From: a virus
Strand: one strand, 5' to 3'
DNA: 31,607 nucleotides
Virus record (IMG/VR): IMGVR_UViG_3300037011_000258
Span: 1 to 31,607 of that record
Below, one piece after another: positions 10,768 to 20,627 of the stretch (positions are counted from its first letter, which is position 1; every line of letters begins with the position of its first letter). Below the pieces are notes generated by a model that saw nothing but the letters and a program-made list of their open reading frames with translations, was not told the DNA's origin and ran no database searches. The translations under genes and the position numbers were made by a program.

Positions 10768-13707
10768 CTACCTTCTACCCTGCGAAGTTCCAGCCAAATC
10801 GTGCAGCATCCCGCCGATCTCCTTCAGCCGGGCTTCCAGCCGCCGATCCCCCTGGAGCAGCTTCTCCAACTTCCCCTCGGCCCGCTTCTCCGTCTCGCGG
10901 TGCGACCCCCGGAACAACTCCTGCTCGGTGATCGGCCCCTTCTTCCGCAACCGCCCCCGCTGCCGCGTCTCCGTCACGAAAGCTGCCGCCAGCCGCCGCT
11001 TCGACTCCTCCGGGGCACCCGCCTCGTCTTCGGGAGGGGGCTCACCCTCGGCCCCCGGCGGAGGACCGAACTGGTCGTTGATGTCCGCCTCGGCCTCGGC
11101 TTGGGCCATCGACATCTTCTTCTGCGCGGCCGACTCCGCCTCGCTCTGCGTTTCGGAGTCGCGCATCACGTCGCCCTTGCGCTGCTTGATGATGGTCTCG
11201 ACCTCCGTGTCGTTCAGCCCGAACACGTTCGTCAAGATCCAGTTGAGCGACACGAAGTCCCGCATCCGGTTGGCGAGGTCCGCCCGTGCGTTCCGCACTT
11301 CAAGCTGCGCCAGCTCGAAGATGCTGGAGGGGACCGTCATCACCAAGTCCCACTCGGTCGCCTCGGGGTCGATGTTCAACGCCGACAGGTGGACGCGCCC
11401 GACCTTCGCCATGCCGGTGCGGATGGCCCGCTGGAGGCGCAGCACTGTCCGGGCGAAGCGCACGTCCTCCGAGGACAGCACCGCGCGCGCGACGCCCTCC
11501 TCCTGCCCCATGTACGCCTTCGGCACCTTGATGGCGGCGAACAGCTTGTCGCGGAAATACTCGATGTCGTCCATGTGCTGCCAGGACGGACTCCCGAGCA
11601 CCTCGATGCGGGTGCCGTCAGCCCCGGCCCGGGTGGGCACCCAGAAGTCGTCGTCCTGGGACAGCGGCTCCCACTTGAGGTCGAGCTTCCCGGTGGTGGG
11701 GTTGTAGAACTTGCGCTTCTTGTGCTGCTGCCGGATGCGATTGACCTGGGCCAGCGCCTCGTGGGGCGGGAGGTCACCCACGTCCACGTAGAAGGCGTAC
11801 CGCTCGGGGGCGCGCTGGAGGCGGAAGATGAGGGCGGCGTCTTCAAGGAGCATCAGCCGCTTCCAGATCCAGCGGGCGGGCTCCAGCACCGAGTAGCCGT
11901 AGAGGCTGCGGCGGTGCTTGCCGCGCAGGCGGAAGTGGGTCACCTCCCAGCCTTCCAGCGCCGCGATCTTCTCCAAGCCCCCGAGCCCGGCGCTCTTGCC
12001 GAGGTTCCCTTGGGCCTGCGCCGTCCGCATCGCCAGGATCTGCTGGAACTCCTGCGGGGAGTTGTGAACTACCACTCCGTCCGCCAAGAAGTTGTGGGCC
12101 TCGTCGTCAACCTCCAGATCGTAGACCTCCGCGTCCTCATAGTAGGAGATGCTGAGAACGCTCTCAGCCACGAAGGACTGCTCGAACTTCCGGTCGCTGT
12201 AGGTGACGTTGAAGCAGGGGAGCTGCGACCGGATGGCCTTCCCGTTGACGACCGTGCCCGGCTTGCGCTGCCGCCGCCCGATGTTGCCGCAGTAGTACCC
12301 CAGACCGTCGATCAGGTTCTTCAGGTCACGAGCAAGGTCGTAGTTGGCGATCTCGAAGTGGTGCCTGAGCTGCCGCGACGGCTGATGGTTCACCCAACCG
12401 TCAGCATCCATGAACCCCGTCAAGAAGGCTTCACGGTGCTCCTCGGGGAGCCCGTACACCCACCCCGGCACCCGCTTCTTGTCGCAGCCAGGAATCCATC
12501 CCAGCGCCAGCAAGAGCCGGGACAACTGCACTGAATCCGCACGAGAGGCGTATCCGTCCCGAACCTCAACCACCGTAGGCTCGACCCCCAACGCACGGAA
12601 CAGCCCGTCGTAGTAGTCGTTCAGCTCGGGGTAGACCCCACGCGCAAACGACACCCTGCGAGGCTCCAGCCACCCATCCCCCAGCAGGAACCCGAACAAC
12701 CGGCAGAAGTCCGGCGTGGGGCGCGAGGGCAGGTCGAGCTTGGTCGGGGAACCCCTGTCACCCCACTCCTGCGTGAACGGGTCGTTCTTCCAGATGGCCG
12801 ACCACTCCGGCACCTCGCCCTTGGTCATCCGGGTGCCGATCACCAGCTTCGACGTGCGCGTGTAGTCGATGTTCCGCTTCTCCCCCTGAAAGCGGACGAT
12901 CTTCAGATCCTTGACCTTCACCCACGACCGCGCCCCGTCGGCCTCAACCAACACCGGGTGGTCCTCGGTCAGATGAACCTCGCGGTGCAACGTCCGCACC
13001 TTGAACACACGCTTGGTGCCGTTGGTGTGGCGCTTCTTCACGCGCAGCGGGACCGGGCGGTCGTCCTTGTACCCCAGCACCACCTTCCCGTCCTCGAACT
13101 CCTGAATCTCCCGCAGCCCGTCCACCCCCCACACCCGCGAACCGCGCGCGAGGCAGTAGCCGAACCGCCCCTTGAAGTCCTGCACGAAGCCGAACAGCTC
13201 CCCCTTCGGCCCCTCGATGCGGCGGACGGTCGGCGGCGGCAGGAAGTTCAGGCCGCGCACCCCATCCTGCGTGACCAGGATCTCCTCGAAGTCGTTGCCG
13301 TACTTGACGAGGGTGCGGGCAATCTCCCACACGTCCTCGTCGGCGCGCAGCGTCCGGTGGTACAGGTCGTCGAGCAACTGCTCGATGTTGCGGTCCCGCG
13401 CCTCGACCCACAGCGTGCGCTTGAGCTGCGTGTCGGGAACCGTGGCGTCGTCGGCGTAGATGTCGATGGCGGCCGACAGCTCGGGGTAGTCGTCCATCTC
13501 CTCGTAGTCGACGAAGCGACTGAGGAGGTCGTGCTCCAGCCGCAGGTAGTCGGAGATGACATCGTACCCGTACGCCTGGAGGATGTCGAAACCGCTGACC
13601 GGATAGCTGGAGGCCGAGGCCCCCTTCGCCATCTGGTAGGCGAGGTTCTCCTTGTCGGCCTTGAAGAACTCGCGGATTCGCTTGCCAACGTCCGATACCC
13701 AGCCCAC
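10768..13707 (-). CDS. Portal protein (gp20-like) interrupted by an intein
   Basis: This 979-codon precursor contains a 614-residue portal protein and a 365-residue intein (residues 185-549). The portal forms the dodecameric channel at the head vertex through which DNA is packaged. N-extein features include YGYDVISDYLRLEHDLLSRF, then EMDDYPELSAAIDIYADDAT, typical of gp20-type portals (acidic PELSAAIDIYADE block). The C-extein holds RWIWKRLMLLEDAALIFRLQ, then RAPERYAFYVDVG, then SQDDDFWVPTRAGADGTRIE, also gp20-like. The C-terminus is acidic then basic. The start is GTG with GAGG a few bases upstream, one base after the preceding stop. Splicing would join FGY to SPQEF. It follows TerL and a small gene in the usual packaging order. 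Confidence 0.85.
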   Translation of the reverse strand: MGWVSDVGKRIREFFKADKENLAYQMAKGASASSYPVSGFDILQAYGYDVISDYLRLEHDLLSRFVDYEEMDDYPELSAAIDIYADDATVPDTQLKRTLWVEARDRNIEQLLDDLYHRTLRADEDVWEIARTLVKYGNDFEEILVTQDGVRGLNFLPPPTVRRIEGPKGELFGFVQDFKGRFGYCLARGSRVWGVDGLREIQEFEDGKVVLGYKDDRPVPLRVKKRHTNGTKRVFKVRTLHREVHLTEDHPVLVEADGARSWVKVKDLKIVRFQGEKRNIDYTRTSKLVIGTRMTKGEVPEWSAIWKNDPFTQEWGDRGSPTKLDLPSRPTPDFCRLFGFLLGDGWLEPRRVSFARGVYPELNDYYDGLFRALGVEPTVVEVRDGYASRADSVQLSRLLLALGWIPGCDKKRVPGWVYGLPEEHREAFLTGFMDADGWVNHQPSRQLRHHFEIANYDLARDLKNLIDGLGYYCGNIGRRQRKPGTVVNGKAIRSQLPCFNVTYSDRKFEQSFVAESVLSISYYEDAEVYDLEVDDEAHNFLADGVVVHNSPQEFQQILAMRTAQAQGNLGKSAGLGGLEKIAALEGWEVTHFRLRGKHRRSLYGYSVLEPARWIWKRLMLLEDAALIFRLQRAPERYAFYVDVGDLPPHEALAQVNRIRQQHKKRKFYNPTTGKLDLKWEPLSQDDDFWVPTRAGADGTRIEVLGSPSWQHMDDIEYFRDKLFAAIKVPKAYMGQEEGVARAVLSSEDVRFARTVLRLQRAIRTGMAKVGRVHLSALNIDPEATEWDLVMTVPSSIFELAQLEVRNARADLANRMRDFVSLNWILTNVFGLNDTEVETIIKQRKGDVMRDSETQSEAESAAQKKMSMAQAEAEADINDQFGPPPGAEGEPPPEDEAGAPEESKRRLAAAFVTETRQRGRLRKKGPITEQELFRGSHRETEKRAEGKLEKLLQGDRRLEARLKEIGGMLHDLAGTSQGRR
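12061..13155 (-). mobile_element. Portal intein with in-frame LAGLIDADG endonuclease
   Basis: This self-splicing element covers portal codons 185-549. It begins with Cys1 (CLARGSRVWG). It has the block B motif HLTEDHPVLV around residue 250 and ends with the C-terminal blocks AEVYDLEVDDEAHNFLADGV then VVHN, followed by Ser as the +1 nucleophile. Between the halves are two LAGLIDADG motifs in the same frame: LFGFLLGDGWL (about 337-347) and FLTGFMDADGWV (about 428-439), marking a homing endonuclease. All splicing residues (Cys1, block B His, penultimate His, terminal Asn, +1 Ser) are present, so activity is expected. It is a conventional large intein, unlike the one in TerL. Confidence 0.92.
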
Positions 13708-14068: not shown

Positions 14069-17000
14069 CTACCTCGGGGACCAACCGCTGCCCCAGTCGT
14101 CACTGCCCCCGGAGCCTACCAGAAACGGGGGCAGTACGTCACGGTTGTTCATCGCCTCGGGGTTCCCCGCCAGCGCCGCTTGGCGCTGTTCGTCCATCCA
14201 CACCTCGCCCGTCATCCCGCCCGTGCCGCGCAAGATCGGGAGGGGCTGCGACACCTGCTTCTGGGACAGGGTGTAGAGGCAGCCCGCCACCGCATCGGCC
14301 ACGTCCTTGGTGCCGTGCGCCGGGTGGTCGACCTTGTTCTTCTCGCGGATGTGCTCGACCGTGCGTAGCTCGTCGATCAGCGGCGGGTAGTTGTAGTAGA
14401 GGACGCGGTTCTCGTAGAGCGCCGTCTTGAGGTTGTCGTAGGGCTCGATGTGGGTATCGACGCTGAGCCGCGCCGAGGTGTAGCCCTTCTTCGACAGTTG
14501 CTGGATGGCGTCCGCCGACTGGAAGGAGTCGAGCGTGACCGAGGTAATGAGGAAACCGTGGGCCGTCAGGTCGTAGACGAACTGCCGCACGTCCCCCAAC
14601 TCGATCTCGCCCCCGACCGGCGGCACGATGCGAAGGAGGAAGTCCACGATGTAGAGCGGGGCCCGCTCCATGAACTCGCGGCCCCCTTCCACCCGCCGCA
14701 CCACGTCCTTGAAGCCGCCGATGTGCGCCATGCAGAGGCCCGTGGCGTCGCCGGACAGGCTCGGGTCGATGTGGACGTGCCGCGCCGCCGTCGGGTTCAG
14801 GAGAGGGCGCAACCGCTTGAACGACACCCCGCCGGGGTTGCGCGCCGTGCTCTCCTTGACCAAGTGGTCCCACAGCATCTGCCCCGGCTTCGACGGGTCG
14901 TGGACCAGCTTGCTGAAGGGGTGGATGCGGGTGAGGTCGATGGCCTCCTCGATCTTCTCGCGCCGCTGGATGTAGGGCGAGATCGCGACCGTCGCCACCC
15001 CCGCCAGGTCGCGCAGCGACCCCTCCAGGTCCCGCTCGAAGTCGGCCCGGAAGTCCTCGGGCACGTCGATGATCACCGTCTCCTCGGGCAGCTTGGCCCG
15101 GAGCGCCTCCACCTCCTCGTTGGGCACGATCTTGGAGGGAATCGTCTCGTTGCCGCACAGCACCCAGAACTTCTGGGTGGTGTAGTAGGCTTCCGGCTTC
15201 ACCCCCCACAAGGGGTAGTCGCGCACGAACACCGTGGGGTCGTTCCGAGCCTCACGAACGCGCTGCGCCGTGAAGTCGTGGCTGGTGCGCTTCGACGACA
15301 CGATGAACAGGATGCCCGGCAGCCGCCCCTGCCGCTGGAAGCGCGACTTCATGCGCCGCTGGATGGCCGCGTACAGCGTGTCCGCCCGGCTCGTGTGCTC
15401 CCACCGCATCCCGGCCGCCCGCCGCTGCTGCGGCTGGGGCATGAAGTTGGTGTTGTGAACTAGGACGCCATCGGCGATGAAGCACTCGTAGCCGGGGACG
15501 CTGACATCGTAGGTAGGGAGCACACCCAACCTTTTCTTGGACACGACGCGGGCCACAGTGAGCGTTCGTCCCAGACCACATACTCCCAGTCGCGCCTCGC
15601 GCAGTAGCGCCGAACGGCGAGCATCTTGGCCTTCTCCCTCGGATGGTTCATGTACCCCCGAGGCTTGACCTCGATCACCAGCACACTCCCGTTCGCACGA
15701 GCCACCACAAAGTCCGGCAGCGTCCACCGCTTCCGCCCCTCGAAGGTGTAGCGCACCGCCAGCTTCTCGTACTCGAAACTCAACACCCCCGGAGACTGCT
15801 CCATCAACTCCACCGCCCGTAGCTCCCAGTCGCTCCGGTATCCGATCTTCCCTGCCTTCTTCGTCTCGACATATCCACGGTAGCGAAAGTCCCCGCGCTT
15901 GATCTTCCAGACGTTCGCCTCGCTGATACGCCTCCGCGACTCGTCCGTGTGCCGAAAGACCCGCGTGCGATTGCGCTCCGCCAAGACGCGCTTGAACTCC
16001 TCGGTGTGCATCGGTCGGCCCTGTCGAACCTCGGACATCTTGCGCCGCGTCTCTGCCGACGCCTTGCGCCCCCGGTGGGCCTTTCCGATGCGTGCCTTCT
16101 CCGCCGGAGTCCGCTGTATCCCGTGTTGGGGGTTCTCCGGCCCGACCATACGCGGCGGCCCCGGATGCTCCCCCGCCGAAATCAGGTCCGTCATCTTCTG
16201 TGAGGCGGCCTGTCGTCGCTCCTCCGTCCACCCCGAGGACCGTTGGGAGAACCGCCCCTCCTGCCACCGCTGCCGCAGCTTCTCCGCGTGTGCCTTTTTG
16301 CGCTCCTCCGTCCATCGGGGCATAGGCCACCACCTCCTCACCATCCATAATACCAGACATGGTGATAAAGCGGAAGACCCCGTTCCGACGCACAGCCACG
16401 GGGTGCGTCCCCGACGCACGAAGCCTGCTACCGTTATCCAACACCAGCTCGAAGCACTCCTGCTCCGTAGAAGACTTGAAGAACGCCTGCGCGTAGACGG
16501 AGCAGTTGCGGTGGAAGTCGAAGGTCACCACCACGGCTTCTCCGACGCGGCACAACTCGTCCACCCGAGCCTCACGGCCGTCGGCCAGCAAGACCTTCGC
16601 GTCGCCAACCAAGCACTCGTCCATCAGCGCCGAGATGATGTTGAGGCCGAGCGCCGAGGTGTCCGAAGTCGCCCTGGCCGCCACCCAGACGTTGCTCGGG
16701 AAGCGCAGCTCCTTCTTGGTCGCCTCGAAGGGGAAGTGCTCCTTGAAGTAGGGGCTGGCCTTGATCTTGGTCGCGACGTTCTCGAAGACGACCTTCACCG
16801 CCAGCGCCTCGCTGACGGACAGGTTGACGATGGAGATGTTGGTGTCGCGGCCGAGGCCGAAGCTGTCGTGCGGGCTGGTCATGCAGGACAGCTCGTAGAG
16901 GATGCGACAGATGCCGATGGACGCGAAGAAGGTCTTGCCCCAGCCGATGGAGCCCGAGAGGATGCACTCGTGGTAGTCCCCCGACATCAGGTCGGTGAGA

Positions 17001-17287
17001 TCGTCGAGCAGCTTGGGGTAGATGTTGTCGCAGGTGTGGCCGAGGTAGTAGGGGTCGAGGCAGAACGTCCGCATGTCCACGGGCGTCCGCTTGTACTCCG
17101 CGTTGCCCAGGAGCTGAAGGAGCTTCTTCTCAGGAGAGGCCGCCGCCGGCGTCGACAACTCTTGGAGCAGGATCTCCAAGGTTTCGCGCTCCGCCGGGTT
17201 GAGCCCCGCCAAGTCCTTCTTCAGGAGCCCGGCAGCCTCCTCCGGCGTGCGCTGACTCCACGCGCGCCCATCCTTCTGGACGATCAT
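14069..17287 (-). CDS. terL: Terminase large subunit (gp17-like) interrupted by an intein
   Basis: This 1072-codon precursor gives a 684-residue terminase after removal of intein codons 225-612. TerL is the ATP-driven DNA packaging motor and headful nuclease. The ATPase domain has Walker A SGSIGWGKTFF (about 111-121) and Walker B IISALMDE (217-224). The nuclease domain has the metal-binding pattern HVHIDPSLSGDATGL, ITSVTLDSFQSADAI and KDVADAVAGCLY, an RNase H-like Asp triad. The intein sits immediately after the Walker B DE, so unspliced protein should be inactive. The gene overlaps the putative small terminase by 4 bases. The frame is open for all 1072 codons, although roughly 245 codons in the middle of the intein resemble no protein and overlie another gene. 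Confidence 0.92.
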   Translation of the reverse strand: MIVQKDGRAWSQRTPEEAAGLLKKDLAGLNPAERETLEILLQELSTPAAASPEKKLLQLLGNAEYKRTPVDMRTFCLDPYYLGHTCDNIYPKLLDDLTDLMSGDYHECILSGSIGWGKTFFASIGICRILYELSCMTSPHDSFGLGRDTNISIVNLSVSEALAVKVVFENVATKIKASPYFKEHFPFEATKKELRFPSNVWVAARATSDTSALGLNIISALMDECLVGDAKVLLADGREARVDELCRVGEAVVVTFDFHRNCSVYAQAFFKSSTEQECFELVLDNGSRLRASGTHPVAVRRNGVFRFITMSGIMDGEEVVAYAPMDGGAQKGTRGEAAAAVAGGAVLPTVLGVDGGATTGRLTEDDGPDFGGGASGAAAYGRAGEPPTRDTADSGGEGTHRKGPPGAQGVGRDAAQDVRGSTGPTDAHRGVQARLGGAQSHAGLSAHGRVAEAYQRGERLEDQARGLSLPWICRDEEGREDRIPERLGATGGGVDGAVSGGVEFRVREAGGALHLRGAEAVDAAGLCGGSCERECAGDRGQASGVHEPSEGEGQDARRSALLREARLGVCGLGRTLTVARVVSKKRLGVLPTYDVSVPGYECFIADGVLVHNTNFMPQPQQRRAAGMRWEHTSRADTLYAAIQRRMKSRFQRQGRLPGILFIVSSKRTSHDFTAQRVREARNDPTVFVRDYPLWGVKPEAYYTTQKFWVLCGNETIPSKIVPNEEVEALRAKLPEETVIIDVPEDFRADFERDLEGSLRDLAGVATVAISPYIQRREKIEEAIDLTRIHPFSKLVHDPSKPGQMLWDHLVKESTARNPGGVSFKRLRPLLNPTAARHVHIDPSLSGDATGLCMAHIGGFKDVVRRVEGGREFMERAPLYIVDFLLRIVPPVGGEIELGDVRQFVYDLTAHGFLITSVTLDSFQSADAIQQLSKKGYTSARLSVDTHIEPYDNLKTALYENRVLYYNYPPLIDELRTVEHIREKNKVDHPAHGTKDVADAVAGCLYTLSQKQVSQPLPILRGTGGMTGEVWMDEQRQAALAGNPEAMNNRDVLPPFLVGSGGSDDWGSGWSPR
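15460..16323 (-). CDS. Nested homing endonuclease: NUMOD3-like repeats + PD-(D/E)XK nuclease
   Basis: This 287-residue protein lies wholly inside the TerL intein but in the +1 frame. Residues 1-140 hold NUMOD3-like DNA-binding repeats: WTEERKKAHAEKLRQRW, GWTEERRQAASQKM, SAETRRKMSEVRQGRP and TDESRRRISEANV. Residues about 160-250 form a PD-(D/E)XK nuclease: YRSDWE (E167), LPDF (D204) and VIEVKP (E218, K220), like the YRSxWE type of TnsA or Vsr-like nucleases. Its ATG overlaps a Tyr codon of the intein and has AGGAGGT 8 bases upstream. Homology ends near residue 252, where the intein C-half begins; the last 35 residues are a frame shadow ending at TAG 15460. It probably drives homing of the intein. 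Confidence 0.82.
   Translation of the reverse strand: MPRWTEERKKAHAEKLRQRWQEGRFSQRSSGWTEERRQAASQKMTDLISAGEHPGPPRMVGPENPQHGIQRTPAEKARIGKAHRGRKASAETRRKMSEVRQGRPMHTEEFKRVLAERNRTRVFRHTDESRRRISEANVWKIKRGDFRYRGYVETKKAGKIGYRSDWELRAVELMEQSPGVLSFEYEKLAVRYTFEGRKRWTLPDFVVARANGSVLVIEVKPRGYMNHPREKAKMLAVRRYCARRDWEYVVWDERSLWPASCPRKGWVCSLPTMSASPATSASSPMAS
16332..16338 (-). promoter_or_regulatory. Shine-Dalgarno of nested endonuclease gene
   Basis: AGGAGGT lies 8 bases before the ATG at 16323, inside terminase-frame codons for EEVV. It decides the start of the nested gene and suggests translation by internal initiation rather than by frameshifting from TerL. The same bases are also needed to encode the conserved end of the intein N-half, so the match could be partly fortuitous. 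Confidence 0.65.
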
Positions 17288-18021
17288 CCGGCGGCCTCGT
17301 GCGGCCCCTCCGCCTCCAGCGCATCCGGGTCGTCCGATGCGACCACGTGGTCGCCCTCCTCCTCTACCTCACCCTCCTCCACCAGCCCATGCTCGGGGTC
17401 ACCCGCCGTCAGCAGTTGCTGCGCCAGCGCCAGCACCTTCCGCCGCGACTCGGGATCGGACAGTACCTGCCCCACCGCCGGGCTGCCGTAGTGCCCCGCC
17501 ACGTCCGCGATGACCTTGGCGTCGATCTCCACCTGGCCGATGTGCCGCTGCGTCAGGCCGAGGTCCATCTTCAACTCGGCGTAGGTAGCGAGGATGTCCT
17601 TCGCCTGCTTGATCTCCTGCGTCATCGAGGGCATCAGCTTGCCCACGTTCTTCTCGATGTTGAGGTCGATCTGGATGCGGCCCATCTGCACCCGGTAGAG
17701 GTTCTCCAACTCCACCAGCTCATTGAGCCCCTGTCGCACCTCGTCCGCCGCCTTGTTGAACAACTGCGGCAGCCGCTGCGCGATCAGCTCGCCCCGAGGC
17801 ATCGCCTGCCGGTAGTCGTTCACCATCGCGATCAGCGCCCCCCGCGTGAGGTCGCCCCCCTCCTGCTGGTCGTCTTGGATGTACCGGGCCACTTGGGTCG
17901 AGGGCCAGCCCTCCACCACCCGCTTGTGAACCTCGGGAAAGCAGCGCAACGCCTTCAACCGCTTGAAGCGGTCGCTCTCCCGGGTCACTGGACGAACGCG
18001 ACGATTACTTGACATGGGCAC
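17284..18021 (-). CDS. Putative terminase small subunit
   Basis: This 245-residue protein overlaps the TerL start by 4 bases (ATGA), the usual place for TerS, which recognises viral DNA and starts packaging. N-terminal residues 15-70 suggest a helix-turn-helix-like unit: RLKALRCFPEVHKRVVEGWP followed by STQVARYIQDD, the pattern 'P-S-T-xx-VA-xx-I' typical of recognition helices. The middle is long helices (residues about 85-190), suited to the ring oligomerisation of TerS. The C-terminus is acidic and disordered. I do not recognise a specific TerS family, so the call rests on position and architecture. The start could be GTG 18021 or ATG 18015; GGAGG lies 4 and 10 bases before them respectively. 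Confidence 0.62.
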   Translation of the reverse strand: MPMSSNRRVRPVTRESDRFKRLKALRCFPEVHKRVVEGWPSTQVARYIQDDQQEGGDLTRGALIAMVNDYRQAMPRGELIAQRLPQLFNKAADEVRQGLNELVELENLYRVQMGRIQIDLNIEKNVGKLMPSMTQEIKQAKDILATYAELKMDLGLTQRHIGQVEIDAKVIADVAGHYGSPAVGQVLSDPESRRKVLALAQQLLTAGDPEHGLVEEGEVEEEGDHVVASDDPDALEAEGPHEAAG

Positions 18022-18409
18022 CTAGCCTCCGGGCTACCAGCACCAATCGTATCATCTGGTAAGCCTTCGGCCAATCCAGCACTTGCACCCCCGCGAACGG
18101 CACCAAGGGCACCCCGAGCCCGTGGTCGTCGATGTAGAGGTCAGCCCGGAGCTTGCCCTGGTCCCCGTAGTCGATGGCATCATAGGGGATGCCGTGATTG
18201 TCGAGGGCGTCCTTCATCTGCTGGAGCCCCCGCGCCCGGTCAGCAGGCTGGTCAGGGAACTCGTGGCTGGCCCGCGCCGACCAGATGATGATCGTGTGCC
18301 CGTCCGCCTTCAGCCGCTGCACGTGCTCGGCCGCCCCCGGCACCACCGGCCCCACCCCCGGCCACTCGTTCAGGAACAGCGTCTCGTCGAAGTCGATGCA
18401 GAGCCTCAC
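18005..18409 (-). CDS. HAD-superfamily phosphatase-like protein
   Basis: This 134-residue single-domain HAD protein has motif I CIDFDETLF (D6 nucleophile, D8 acid/base), motif II IIIWSAR (S44), and motifs III/IV GKLRADLYIDDHG (K86, D94, D95). All catalytic residues are present. Small HAD proteins of this type are common in phages; substrates may be nucleotides, polynucleotide 3' ends or small metabolites. There is no cap domain, which suggests large or polymer substrates. It is coupled to the Ddl-like gene by a 4-base ATGA overlap and overlaps the putative TerS gene downstream, so it may belong to the KamA/Ddl-like pathway or be a separate nucleic-acid repair function. Confidence 0.82.
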   Translation of the reverse strand: MRLCIDFDETLFLNEWPGVGPVVPGAAEHVQRLKADGHTIIIWSARASHEFPDQPADRARGLQQMKDALDNHGIPYDAIDYGDQGKLRADLYIDDHGLGVPLVPFAGVQVLDWPKAYQMIRLVLVARRLGAHVK

Positions 18410-19437
18410 GCCCGCCTCCGTCGTTCCGCGCGGTAGACCGCTCCGGCCACGATCTTCCCCACGAGGTCCGCGTGCGATAGCCCCAACTGCTGCGCCATGA
18501 TGACGAGGTCGCTGTTGACCGGGTCGAGCCCCGGCAACGGGTTGATGTCGAGCAGGTACGGGCGACCGGCGACGGAGAGGCGGAAGTCGATGCGCGCCAC
18601 GTCCCGACAGCCCAGCGCGTGGAACGCGCGCAGCGCCGCTTGCGTGGTGTCATCCAGCGCGTCCCCGTTGAAGCGCGGCGGCGTGAAGTAGTCCACCACC
18701 CGCAGGTAGTCCCGCTTCACCTCCAGCCCGTACACCTGCCACTGTTCCCCGGACTTGGGCGCGATCTCCATCACCCCCACCACCTCCGGGGGGTCGCCCG
18801 CGATGCCCACCGTCACCTCGGGGCCGTCGATGAACTCCTCCACCAGCGCCGGTTGGTGGTACTCGTCCCGGTTCCGCACCAGCATCTCTTGCAGTCGGTG
18901 GTCGTCCTCCACCACGGACAACCGCCGCACCCCTCGGGAGGAGCCCTCGTGCAGGGGCTTGACGATGAGCGGGAACTCCAGATCGAGGGCGTAGCGCCGC
19001 TGCACCGCCGCCTCGGGGTCACCTTCCACGAAGCCTCGGGGCACCACCACTCCAGCCGCCGCTGCCAGTGTCCTCGTGACCCCCTTGTCCAAGCTGGCGG
19101 AGAGCGCCAACGGATCGGAGCCCACGTAGGGGATGCCGAACATCTCCAGCAGCGCGGGCACCTGCGCCTCGCGCGACCGTCCGCCGAAGCCTTCGGCGAT
19201 GTTGAAGACGAAGTCCACGGGTGCCACCCGGTACTCGTTCAGCACGTAGTCGAGCAGGCCGTAGCCCCACCCCAGGTCCACTACGTCATGCCCCAGGGCG
19301 TGGAGCGAGCCGAAGATCGCGTCCACCGTGGCGGCCCGGTCGTACTCCTCCAAGGCGTCGTCGGTACAGGAGGCTCCCCGGTCGTGCAGGAACTTCGCCA
19401 TCTCCTCCTTCTCGGTGTAGGTCAGCCCGATCTTCAT
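18406..19437 (-). CDS. Ddl-like ATP-grasp ligase (D-Ala-D-Ala ligase fold)
   Basis: This 343-residue enzyme has the order of a D-alanine-D-alanine ligase: LLEMFGIPYVGSDPLALSAS (97-116) with SLDKGVTRTL, the ATP-binding loop FPLIVKPLHEGSSRGV (155-170, K160), VEEFIDGPEVTVGI, VARIDFRL (D284) and metal-binding LLDINPLPGLDP (D297, N299). These enzymes join two amino acids via an acyl phosphate. The N-terminal substrate motif is NIAEGFGGRSREAQVP rather than the HGxxGEDG loop of true Ddl, so the substrate probably differs from D-Ala. GGAGG precedes the ATG by 5-6 bases; an open-frame extension upstream is a shadow of kamA. It is coupled to kamA and to the HAD gene by 4-base overlaps, suggesting ligation of a KamA product. 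Confidence 0.85.
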   Translation of the reverse strand: MKIGLTYTEKEEMAKFLHDRGASCTDDALEEYDRAATVDAIFGSLHALGHDVVDLGWGYGLLDYVLNEYRVAPVDFVFNIAEGFGGRSREAQVPALLEMFGIPYVGSDPLALSASLDKGVTRTLAAAAGVVVPRGFVEGDPEAAVQRRYALDLEFPLIVKPLHEGSSRGVRRLSVVEDDHRLQEMLVRNRDEYHQPALVEEFIDGPEVTVGIAGDPPEVVGVMEIAPKSGEQWQVYGLEVKRDYLRVVDYFTPPRFNGDALDDTTQAALRAFHALGCRDVARIDFRLSVAGRPYLLDINPLPGLDPVNSDLVIMAQQLGLSHADLVGKIVAGAVYRAERRRRA

Positions 19438-20627
19438 GTCCCCCTCCGCCACTGGTCCGTGTAGGAACACCGACAGTCGGTCCCCTCCTCCGGCTGCTCG
19501 TAGGTATATGGGTGCCCCTCGTAGTTGCGAAGCTCGACCAAGCGGCTGCCCACGTTGGTCACGTAGGTCGGAGCCACTGGGATCTTGCCACCACCGCCGG
19601 GGGCGTCGATGACGAAGGTGGGCACCGCGAAGCCGCTGGTGTGGCCGCGTAGCTGCTCCATCACCGCGAGCCCCACGCCGACCGGGGTGCGGAAGTGCTC
19701 GGTGCCAGCGACGAGGTCGCACTGGTAGAGGTAGTACGGGCGCACGCGCGCGCGAACCAACTCATGGACCAGCTCCTTCATCACCACCGGGTCACTGTTG
19801 ACCCCCCGCAGCAGCACGCTCTGGTTCCCGAGGGGGATGCCCGCGCTCACGATCTTCTGGCAGGCGGCCCGCGCCTCGGGGGTCAGTTCCTTGGGGTGGT
19901 TGAAGTGGGTGTTGATCCAGAGCGGGTGGTGCTTAGCGAGCACCTTCACCAGATCGTCGGTGATGCGCTGGGGGAGGAACATCGGCATCCGCGTCCCGAG
20001 GCGAACAATCTCCACCGAGGGGACCGACCGCACCCGCTCCAGCACGTAGTCGAGGTTGGCGTCGCTCATGGTCAGCGGGTCGCCGCCGCTGATGAGCACG
20101 TCGCGGACCTCGGGGTGGGCGCGCAGGTAGGTGAGGGCCTGGTCGAACTCCGCGTGCGGCAGCACCTCGTTGGCTTGGGCGGTGAGGCGCTTCCGGGTGC
20201 AGAAGCGGCAGTAGCTGGCGCACATATTGTTGACCAGCAGCAGCACCCGGTCGGGGTAGCGGTGGATGAGGCCGGGGGCGACCCGATACTGCTCCTCGGC
20301 CAGCGGGTCCTCCTCGCCCGTGGAGCGGGTTTCTTGCTGGGTCGGGACGAACTGCATCCTGATAGGACAGGCTGCGTCGTGCGGGTCCATCAAGGAGGCG
20401 AGGTAGGGCGTGATTGCCATGCGGAAGTGCTCGCGCGCAGCGAGCAGCCCGTCTCGCTCAGCGTTGGTGAGCCGGAGAACTTGGCTCAGCTCAGCCAGCG
20501 TCGTGATGCTGTGCTTGAGCTGCCAAGTCCAACTCGCCCACTCCTCCTCGGTGACATTCTGGTAGAGGGGGATCGTGTTGTAGTGCCGCCCCCGACGGCA
20601 CAAGGAAGGTTCCGCGCCAGGCTCCAT
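19434..20627 (-). CDS. kamA: Lysine 2,3-aminomutase family radical SAM enzyme
   Basis: This 397-residue protein is near full length for KamA enzymes, which convert L-lysine to L-beta-lysine (some relatives use other amino acids) with SAM, a [4Fe-4S] cluster and PLP. The radical SAM motif is CASYCRFC (C136, C140, C143). Further hallmarks are DVLISGGDPLTMSD, GTRMPMFLPQRIT, LGNQSVLLRGVN, YYLYQCDLVAG (D304), LRGHTSGFAVPTF and DAPGGGGKIPV (D341, K348 as PLP lysine). The Asp pair that binds the substrate amine is present. The C-terminus has DCRC (C385, C387), part of the zinc site; the Cys usually in VNDC is absent (VNSDP). It starts at ATG with AGGG upstream and overlaps the Ddl-like gene by 4 bases. 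Confidence 0.93.
   Translation of the reverse strand: MEPGAEPSLCRRGRHYNTIPLYQNVTEEEWASWTWQLKHSITTLAELSQVLRLTNAERDGLLAAREHFRMAITPYLASLMDPHDAACPIRMQFVPTQQETRSTGEEDPLAEEQYRVAPGLIHRYPDRVLLLVNNMCASYCRFCTRKRLTAQANEVLPHAEFDQALTYLRAHPEVRDVLISGGDPLTMSDANLDYVLERVRSVPSVEIVRLGTRMPMFLPQRITDDLVKVLAKHHPLWINTHFNHPKELTPEARAACQKIVSAGIPLGNQSVLLRGVNSDPVVMKELVHELVRARVRPYYLYQCDLVAGTEHFRTPVGVGLAVMEQLRGHTSGFAVPTFVIDAPGGGGKIPVAPTYVTNVGSRLVELRNYEGHPYTYEQPEEGTDCRCSYTDQWRRGT

What the first reader, a model, noticed from the sequence alone, without database searches (positions are those of the whole stretch)
15452..16615. Homing endonuclease gene nested out of frame inside a terminase intein
The TerL intein keeps all splicing residues (Cys1, block B His, terminal HN, Thr+1), but only in two halves of about 100 and 40 residues in the TerL frame. 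The slot where an in-frame endonuclease normally sits is filled by a 287-codon gene in the +1 frame, with SD AGGAGGT, ATG 16323 and stop 15460. It encodes NUMOD3-like repeats and a PD-(D/E)XK nuclease (YRSDWE, LPDF, VIEVK). The nuclease homology begins and ends where the splicing halves end and begin. So one DNA stretch must stay open in two frames: one for a roughly 245-residue non-homologous linker that is spliced out, one for an enzyme. This decouples endonuclease translation from intein splicing. I know of no standard description of such an arrangement.
Basis: partly seen in the sequence, partly recalled or inferred. Interest (0 to 1): 0.92.

Follow-up and report, generated by a model that had tools for sequence, protein, structure and literature searches.

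The report
Nuclease gene hidden inside an intein
In two distantly related phages, the gene for the DNA-packaging motor carries a self-splicing protein insert whose middle is also read, in a second reading frame, as a separate DNA-cutting enzyme, so one piece of DNA is kept usable in two frames at once.

Summary
The TerL gene (17287..14069, -) has a contiguous class-1-type intein (16615..15452) exactly between Walker-B residue E224 and T+1; close relatives have the empty site. Its two Hint halves (residues 1-100, 348-388) model with confidence and match intein structures (Z 21.8), while the 247 residues between them model as disorder. That stretch encodes, in the +1 frame, a 287-aa NUMOD3 plus TnsA-like PD-(D/E)XK nuclease with its own Shine-Dalgarno. 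A second phage group (L071/L072; TerL exteins 42% identical, 54% GC) has the same site, same frame offset, a strong Shine-Dalgarno and the same TAG stop position. There the TerL frame should hold 14.8 stops by synonymous permutation and has none (0 of 20,000 shuffles); the third frame behaves as expected. So TerL translation through the nuclease gene is under selection, while the nuclease frame is conserved as protein. Related nucleases lie between halves of split inteins in 'fractured' UvsW genes. Best reading: a cis-splicing intein whose homing endonuclease is an independently initiated overlapping gene. Closest published precedent: the ShiLan out-of-frame HNH insert, without splicing domain. 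A 2025 preprint on 'non-canonical' phage inteins could not be read and may overlap.

The parts
14069..17287 (-). TerL (large terminase) gene, single continuous ORF of 1072 codons including the intein
   Evidence: exteins align end to end with intein-less TerLs L005 and L012-L023
16616..17287 (-). TerL N-extein, ending at Walker B ...ISALMDE
14069..15451 (-). TerL C-extein, beginning at T+1 (TNFM...)
15452..16615 (-). intein, 388 residues, Cys1 to terminal His-Asn
   Evidence: model matches Mtu RecA intein splicing domain, Z 21.8, rmsd 1.6 over 136 residues
16316..16615 (-). N-terminal splicing half (residues 1-100), with Cys1 and block B S-x-x-H
   Evidence: pLDDT about 78-94; 43% identical to L071 over this region
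15575..16315 (-). TerL-frame linker (residues 101-347), predicted disordered; only its openness, not its sequence, looks selected
   Evidence: pLDDT about 22-43; identity to L071 0.30 against 0.254 expected from nuclease constraint; no stops
15452..15574 (-). C-terminal splicing half (residues 348-388), ending GVLVHN
   Evidence: TIGR01443 intein_Cterm; pLDDT about 90
15460..16323 (-). nested homing-endonuclease-like gene, 287 codons, +1 frame relative to TerL
   Evidence: 45% identical to nested ORF of L071
16332..16338 (-). Shine-Dalgarno AGGAGGT, 8 nt before ATG 16323, inside the intein codons for Glu-Glu-Val
   Evidence: sequence; L071 has TAAAGGAGG 6 nt before its ATG
15913..16107 (-). 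NUMOD3 repeats (nuclease residues about 73-137), probable DNA-binding part
   Evidence: PF07460; 1e-13 in L071
15550..15837 (-). PD-(D/E)XK core (nuclease residues 163-258); E167, D204, E218, K220 invariant in 11 homologues
   Evidence: Foldseek best hit TnsA 1t0f E 9e-6, Z 9.7
15505..15553 (-). doubly constrained block: nuclease PASCPRKGWVCSLP and intein ARVVSKKRLGVLPTY in overlapping frames
   Evidence: each frame is more conserved than the other frame alone predicts

Best explanation
A mobile, cis-splicing intein sits in the Walker B motif of TerL. Ribosomes that start at TerL read straight through it, giving a precursor whose Hint halves fold together, loop out a long disordered linker, and splice to restore TerL. 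Other ribosomes start at a separate Shine-Dalgarno and ATG inside the intein and read the linker DNA in the +1 frame. They make a free NUMOD3/PD-(D/E)XK homing endonuclease that would cut intein-less TerL genes and so spread the whole element. Shown by sequence: the insertion, both open frames, conservation of the layout in two divergent phage groups, selection against TerL-frame stops, and protein-level constraint on the nuclease. Inferred: splicing, internal initiation, target cutting and homing.
For: Empty TerL sites align exactly at E224/T+1. Same site, offset, start and stop anatomy in L071/L072. TerL-frame stops 0 against 14.8 expected (L071) and 6.2 (window), while the third frame has 10 against 10.5 and 6 against 7.1. 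T-ending codons before AA/AG/GA: 0 of 85 and 0 of 68, against 34 of 163 and 4 of 158 in the exteins of the same genes. Nuclease-frame changes at codon positions 1, 2, 3 are 0.35, 0.36, 0.59 in the core. Structure models of both products. In L071 a TAA 15 nt upstream closes the nuclease frame, so ATG 2194 is the start. Patchy distribution: the window's nearest TerLs lack the intein, and it recurs in a TerL only 42% identical.
Against: No protein-level data. L071 and L072 differ by one base in TerL, so there are only two independent lineages. Intein family scores are below Pfam cut-offs in both. Mobility is inferred from distribution; vertical descent with losses is not excluded. Internal initiation within a heavily translated ORF may be weak.
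Confidence: 0.87

Rival explanations
1. Assembly or sequencing artefact: two compensating indels have shifted a normal in-frame endonuclease domain out of frame.
For: IMG/VR contigs are unpolished metagenome assemblies; canonical inteins keep the endonuclease in frame (general knowledge; PMC6801210 abstract).
Against: The same layout is found in contigs of two divergent groups from different samples. A shifted artefact would not purge TerL-frame stops in both nor supply a Shine-Dalgarno and ATG at the start of both nuclease ORFs.
Confidence: 0.02
2. Programmed frameshifting joins IntN, nuclease and IntC into one conventional intein polypeptide, with a shift into and out of the nuclease frame.
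For: The nuclease fills the usual endonuclease slot, and the nuclease frame in the window is open upstream of ATG to about 16524.
Against: Two opposite shifts would be needed. In L071 a TAA lies 15 nt before the ATG in the nuclease frame, leaving only 12 nt for a shift, and that stretch is a perfect Shine-Dalgarno. It does not explain why the TerL frame is kept free of stops across the whole nuclease gene.
Confidence: 0.05
3. The intein works as a split intein in trans, as in fractured genes: IntN and IntC are made as separate chains and the nuclease gene simply lies between them.
For: Related PD-(D/E)XK genes do lie between separate IntN and IntC ORFs in UvsW-like genes (L028, L030, L032, L043, L046, L051, L052) and in LR745208.1.
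Against: In both TerL cases there is no stop after IntN, and synonymous sites are specifically free of stops up to IntC, which a split arrangement would not require.
Confidence: 0.04
4. The nuclease is a decaying or untranslated passenger; only the intein matters.
For: No expression data; the N-terminal 72 residues are poorly conserved (20%).
Against: Positions 1 and 2 are conserved over position 3, catalytic E, D, E, K are invariant, and both copies are full-length with ribosome-binding sites at 45% identity.
Confidence: 0.02

Closest known systems
ShiLan domain and Pacc40 gp60 insert (Arsenault, Gosselin, Gogarten, Genes 2025, PMC11855218)
   Same: Mobile insert in a phage gene that is open in the host frame but encodes a homing endonuclease in another frame, starting and stopping inside the insert.
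   Different: HNH nuclease, GTG start with no detectable Shine-Dalgarno, methylase host, and no intein or intron splicing module: its authors predict that the insert stays in the protein. Here the insert has both Hint halves and should splice out, and the nuclease is PD-(D/E)XK with a clear Shine-Dalgarno.
Actinobacteriophage Inteins: ... Non-Canonical Architecture (Gosselin et al., bioRxiv 10.1101/2025.01.02.630785)
   Same: Cited by PMC11855218 for overlapping frames in actinobacteriophages; by title it may describe inteins with out-of-frame endonucleases.
   Different: Not held, so unread; whether it covers this arrangement is unknown.
Fractured genes: split inteins with a free-standing homing endonuclease gene between the halves (Dassa et al. 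2009, known from citations and general knowledge; not held)
   Same: A separately started endonuclease gene between IntN and IntC. In UvsW-like loci found here it is a related PD-(D/E)XK enzyme at a DExx motif, and its 3' end overlaps the IntC ORF in another frame.
   Different: There IntN ends in a stop and splicing must be in trans; here the host frame is continuous and selected to stay so.
Mycobacteriophage TerL1-e intein of Gaia gp2 (Kelley et al. 2016, PMC5050341)
   Same: TerL intein in the Walker B motif; spliced in a reporter assay in that paper.
   Different: Read here: an ordinary in-frame intein with no codon-phase switch and no long out-of-frame ORF over its middle.

Membership tests
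Cis-splicing intein (class 1) | Nucleophile at position 1, block B His, C-terminal His-Asn, Cys/Ser/Thr +1 | tested here: met
   C1, SGTH block B, HN, T+1 in window; C1, SLDH, HN, T+1 in L071
Cis-splicing intein (class 1) | Hint fold from both halves | tested here: met
   AlphaFold2 model, Z 21.8 to Mtu RecA intein splicing domain
Cis-splicing intein (class 1) | Halves in one continuous reading frame with the exteins | tested here: met
   single ORFs; stop avoidance
Cis-splicing intein (class 1) | Precise insertion relative to intein-less homologues | tested here: met
Cis-splicing intein (class 1) | Protein splicing activity | not testable with these tools
   needs an expression assay
Canonical endonuclease-bearing intein | Endonuclease domain in frame between the splicing halves | tested here: not met
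   nuclease lies in the +1 frame in both lineages; the portal intein in the same window has its LAGLIDADG domain in frame
Fractured gene / split intein with free-standing HEG | Host gene broken into two ORFs | tested here: not met
   no break; continuity selected
Fractured gene / split intein with free-standing HEG | Separately started endonuclease gene between IntN and IntC | tested here: met
ShiLan-type out-of-frame HEG insert | Host frame open through an insert coding a HEG in another frame | tested here: met
ShiLan-type out-of-frame HEG insert | No recognisable splicing module | tested here: not met
   both Hint halves present
NUMOD3 / PD-(D/E)XK homing endonuclease | NUMOD3 motifs plus a PD-(D/E)XK core with E..D..ExK | tested here: met
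NUMOD3 / PD-(D/E)XK homing endonuclease | Cuts the intein-less allele | not testable with these tools
   needs a cleavage assay
Self-splicing (group I) intron | Intron RNA structure | tested here: inconclusive
   no Rfam hit in 14069-17400 up to E 1; protein splice residues and an open frame favour an intein

The most novel reading that the evidence does not exclude
A distinct architecture of mobile intein, 'overlapping intein', in which the splicing frame and the endonuclease frame are two selected reading frames of one stretch of DNA, with separate ribosome-binding sites. It may be the missing state between contiguous inteins and fractured genes with split inteins, which carry related endonucleases.
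Probability: 0.5. Interest if true: 0.82.

Novelty: new variant of a known kind. Interest (0 to 1): 0.76.

Why it matters
Inteins with endonucleases are textbook fusions: one chain carries both activities. Here the two are separate proteins from overlapping frames, so endonuclease level, stability and fate are uncoupled from splicing, and synonymous sites record the cost (no TerL-frame stop in roughly 270-290 codons). It suggests a route to fractured genes: a separately started HEG inside an intein already makes the split possible, and losing the linker frame would force trans-splicing. The large overlap is also a clean natural test for detecting dual-frame selection in phages. Gene callers that forbid long same-strand overlaps would miss such nucleases and label the linker as unknown protein.

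Tried and rejected
An alignment of five nucleases was too diverse to scan with. 'Relatives' of the window cannot be drawn for a virus record. Gaia TerL1-e was checked as a possible further case and is ordinary. TerL-frame linker sequence as a functional domain: rejected, its identity is near that expected from nuclease constraint (P 0.06) and it models as disorder. General avoidance of T before A or G as the cause of missing stops: rejected, because T before other A/G-starting codons and in exteins is normal. Single-case statistics in the window alone are moderate because of GC content. Dassa 2009, Gorbalenya 1998 and the 2025 preprint were not held.

Full report
Observation. TerL is one ORF, 17287..14069 on the minus strand. 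The intein runs from Cys1 at 16615 to Asn at 15452, with T+1 at 15451. Pfam Intein_splicing covers residues 232-612 (E 4e-7, below its curated cut-off), and NCBIfam finds intein_Cterm (2e-5, above cut-off) and intein_Nterm (4e-4, slightly below). In the +1 frame, ATG 16323 to TAG 15460 codes 287 residues that match TnsA-like N (5.5e-10) and NUMOD3 (4.9e-6). Codon-position GC in the TerL frame changes from about 0.6/0.4/0.9 to about 0.86/0.6/0.43 between 16330 and 15560 and then returns; read in the nuclease frame that is the genome's usual coding signature.

Empty sites. TerLs at 43-69% identity over the N-extein (L005, L012-L023) run through the site without a gap: window ...SALMDE|CLVGD...VLVHN|TNFM, L005 ...GAIDE|TNFM, L013 ...ALLDE|TNFM. 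L025, a more distant TerL, has a 151-residue mini-intein at the same bond. A tree of spliced TerLs puts the window with intein-less L005 and L012, and L071 far away (42% extein identity; its branch is long, so its exact place is unsure); the scatter fits mobility but does not prove it.

A second case. Scanning with the window nuclease and a weak free-standing relative (L059) found L071 and L072. Their TerL (980 codons) has an intein at the same bond, GIMDE|CVTGDS...GVVTHN|TNFM, with no stop, and a nested ORF 46% identical to the window nuclease over residues 16-276, in the same relative frame. Its ATG 2194 follows TAAAGGAGG by 6 nt. Both nuclease stops are TAG within the codons just before the terminal splicing motif. 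The two contigs differ by one base in TerL, silent for TerL and His to Pro in the nuclease, so they count as one lineage. This second lineage rules out an assembly accident.

Two frames under selection. Shuffling synonymous codons of each nuclease predicts 6.2 (window) and 14.8 (L071) TerL-frame stops; both have 0 (P about 3e-4, and 0 of 20,000 shuffles). The third frame has 6 and 10 against 7.1 and 10.5 expected. T-ending codons before AA, AG or GA number 0 of 68 and 0 of 85, while before other A/G-starting codons they are 11 of 90 and 19 of 84. In the exteins of the same genes the stop-making context is used normally (4 of 158, 34 of 163). Between the two lineages the nuclease core changes mainly at its third positions (0.35, 0.36, 0.59), with 54% amino-acid identity. 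The linker in the TerL frame is no more alike than nuclease constraint predicts (0.30 against 0.254, P 0.06): it has to be open, not to be anything. At the 3' end, about 15 codons are conserved in both frames beyond what either alone predicts.

Structures. The intein model has confident residues 1-100 and 348-388 with pLDDT near 25 between, and superposes on Mtu RecA and DnaB mini-inteins (Z about 20-22, rmsd 1.6-1.9). The alignment behind it had only four rows. The nuclease model has a confident core (165-258) whose best PDB match is TnsA (Foldseek E 9e-6; Z 9.7, rmsd 3.0 over 114), with the homing endonuclease I-Bth0305I and Vsr lower (Z about 7). E167, D204, E218 and K220 are invariant in 11 homologues.

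Relation to fractured genes. Loci fetched as intein relatives include UvsW-like helicases broken at the DExx box: an N-fragment ending in IntN, then a nuclease with YRSSWE...VDF...VIEVKP, then IntC plus helicase C-domain starting within the nuclease 3' end in another frame (L028, similarly L030, L032, L043, L046, L051, L052; L040 lacks the nuclease). Similarity of the L028 nuclease to the window's is E 2e-8 in a pairwise test. LR745208.1 shows a similar order around an unnamed gene, with a homologous nuclease (the short N-fragment there is assigned by eye and has no HMM hit). The TerL elements are the unbroken counterpart. The direction of change is not known.

Mechanism. Inferred: TerL ribosomes make the precursor, which splices in cis; internal initiation makes a free nuclease; cutting of the empty Walker B site and repair copies the intein with its nested gene. 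Frameshifting, trans-splicing and decay are less likely for the reasons in the rival list. No Rfam family matches the region.

Literature. In the held library (10 searches) the only closely matching paper is PMC11855218, an out-of-frame HNH insert in a methylase without splicing domains and without a detectable ribosome-binding site. It cites a 2025 preprint on non-canonical actinobacteriophage inteins for overlapping frames; that preprint is not held, so priority cannot be settled. Walker B TerL inteins themselves are known (TerL1-e; PMC5050341), and the Gaia example is conventional.

Verdict.

Noticed in passing
window 12061-13155 (-), in portal gene 10768-13707: The portal gene carries a second, conventional 365-residue intein with an in-frame LAGLIDADG domain and no switch in codon-phase GC; a useful control.
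   Followed up: partly
window 18005-20627 (-): Between TerL and a PolA-type polymerase lie a HAD-type phosphatase, a D-Ala-D-Ala-ligase-like ATP-grasp protein and a lysine 2,3-aminomutase-like radical SAM enzyme (TIGR03820, 5e-153), an unusual metabolic set for a phage.
   Followed up: no
L024 17-5311: A TerL with three inteins in one gene at other sites, with in-frame HNH or LAGLIDADG endonucleases.
   Followed up: partly
L028, L030, L032, L043, L046, L051, L052; L040: UvsW-like helicase genes fractured at the DExx box by split inteins, with a TnsA-like/PD-(D/E)XK HEG between the halves overlapping the C-fragment out of frame; L040 has the split without the HEG.
   Followed up: partly
L056 837-3211 (LR745208.1): Unannotated 485-kb phage record: an apparent split intein with a very short N-fragment, like atypical TerL split inteins, and a homologous nuclease between the parts.
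   Followed up: partly
L059 3228-5281: A free-standing relative of the nuclease inserted at the start of a gene; the peptide YFQLTE is repeated at the start of both ORFs.
   Followed up: no
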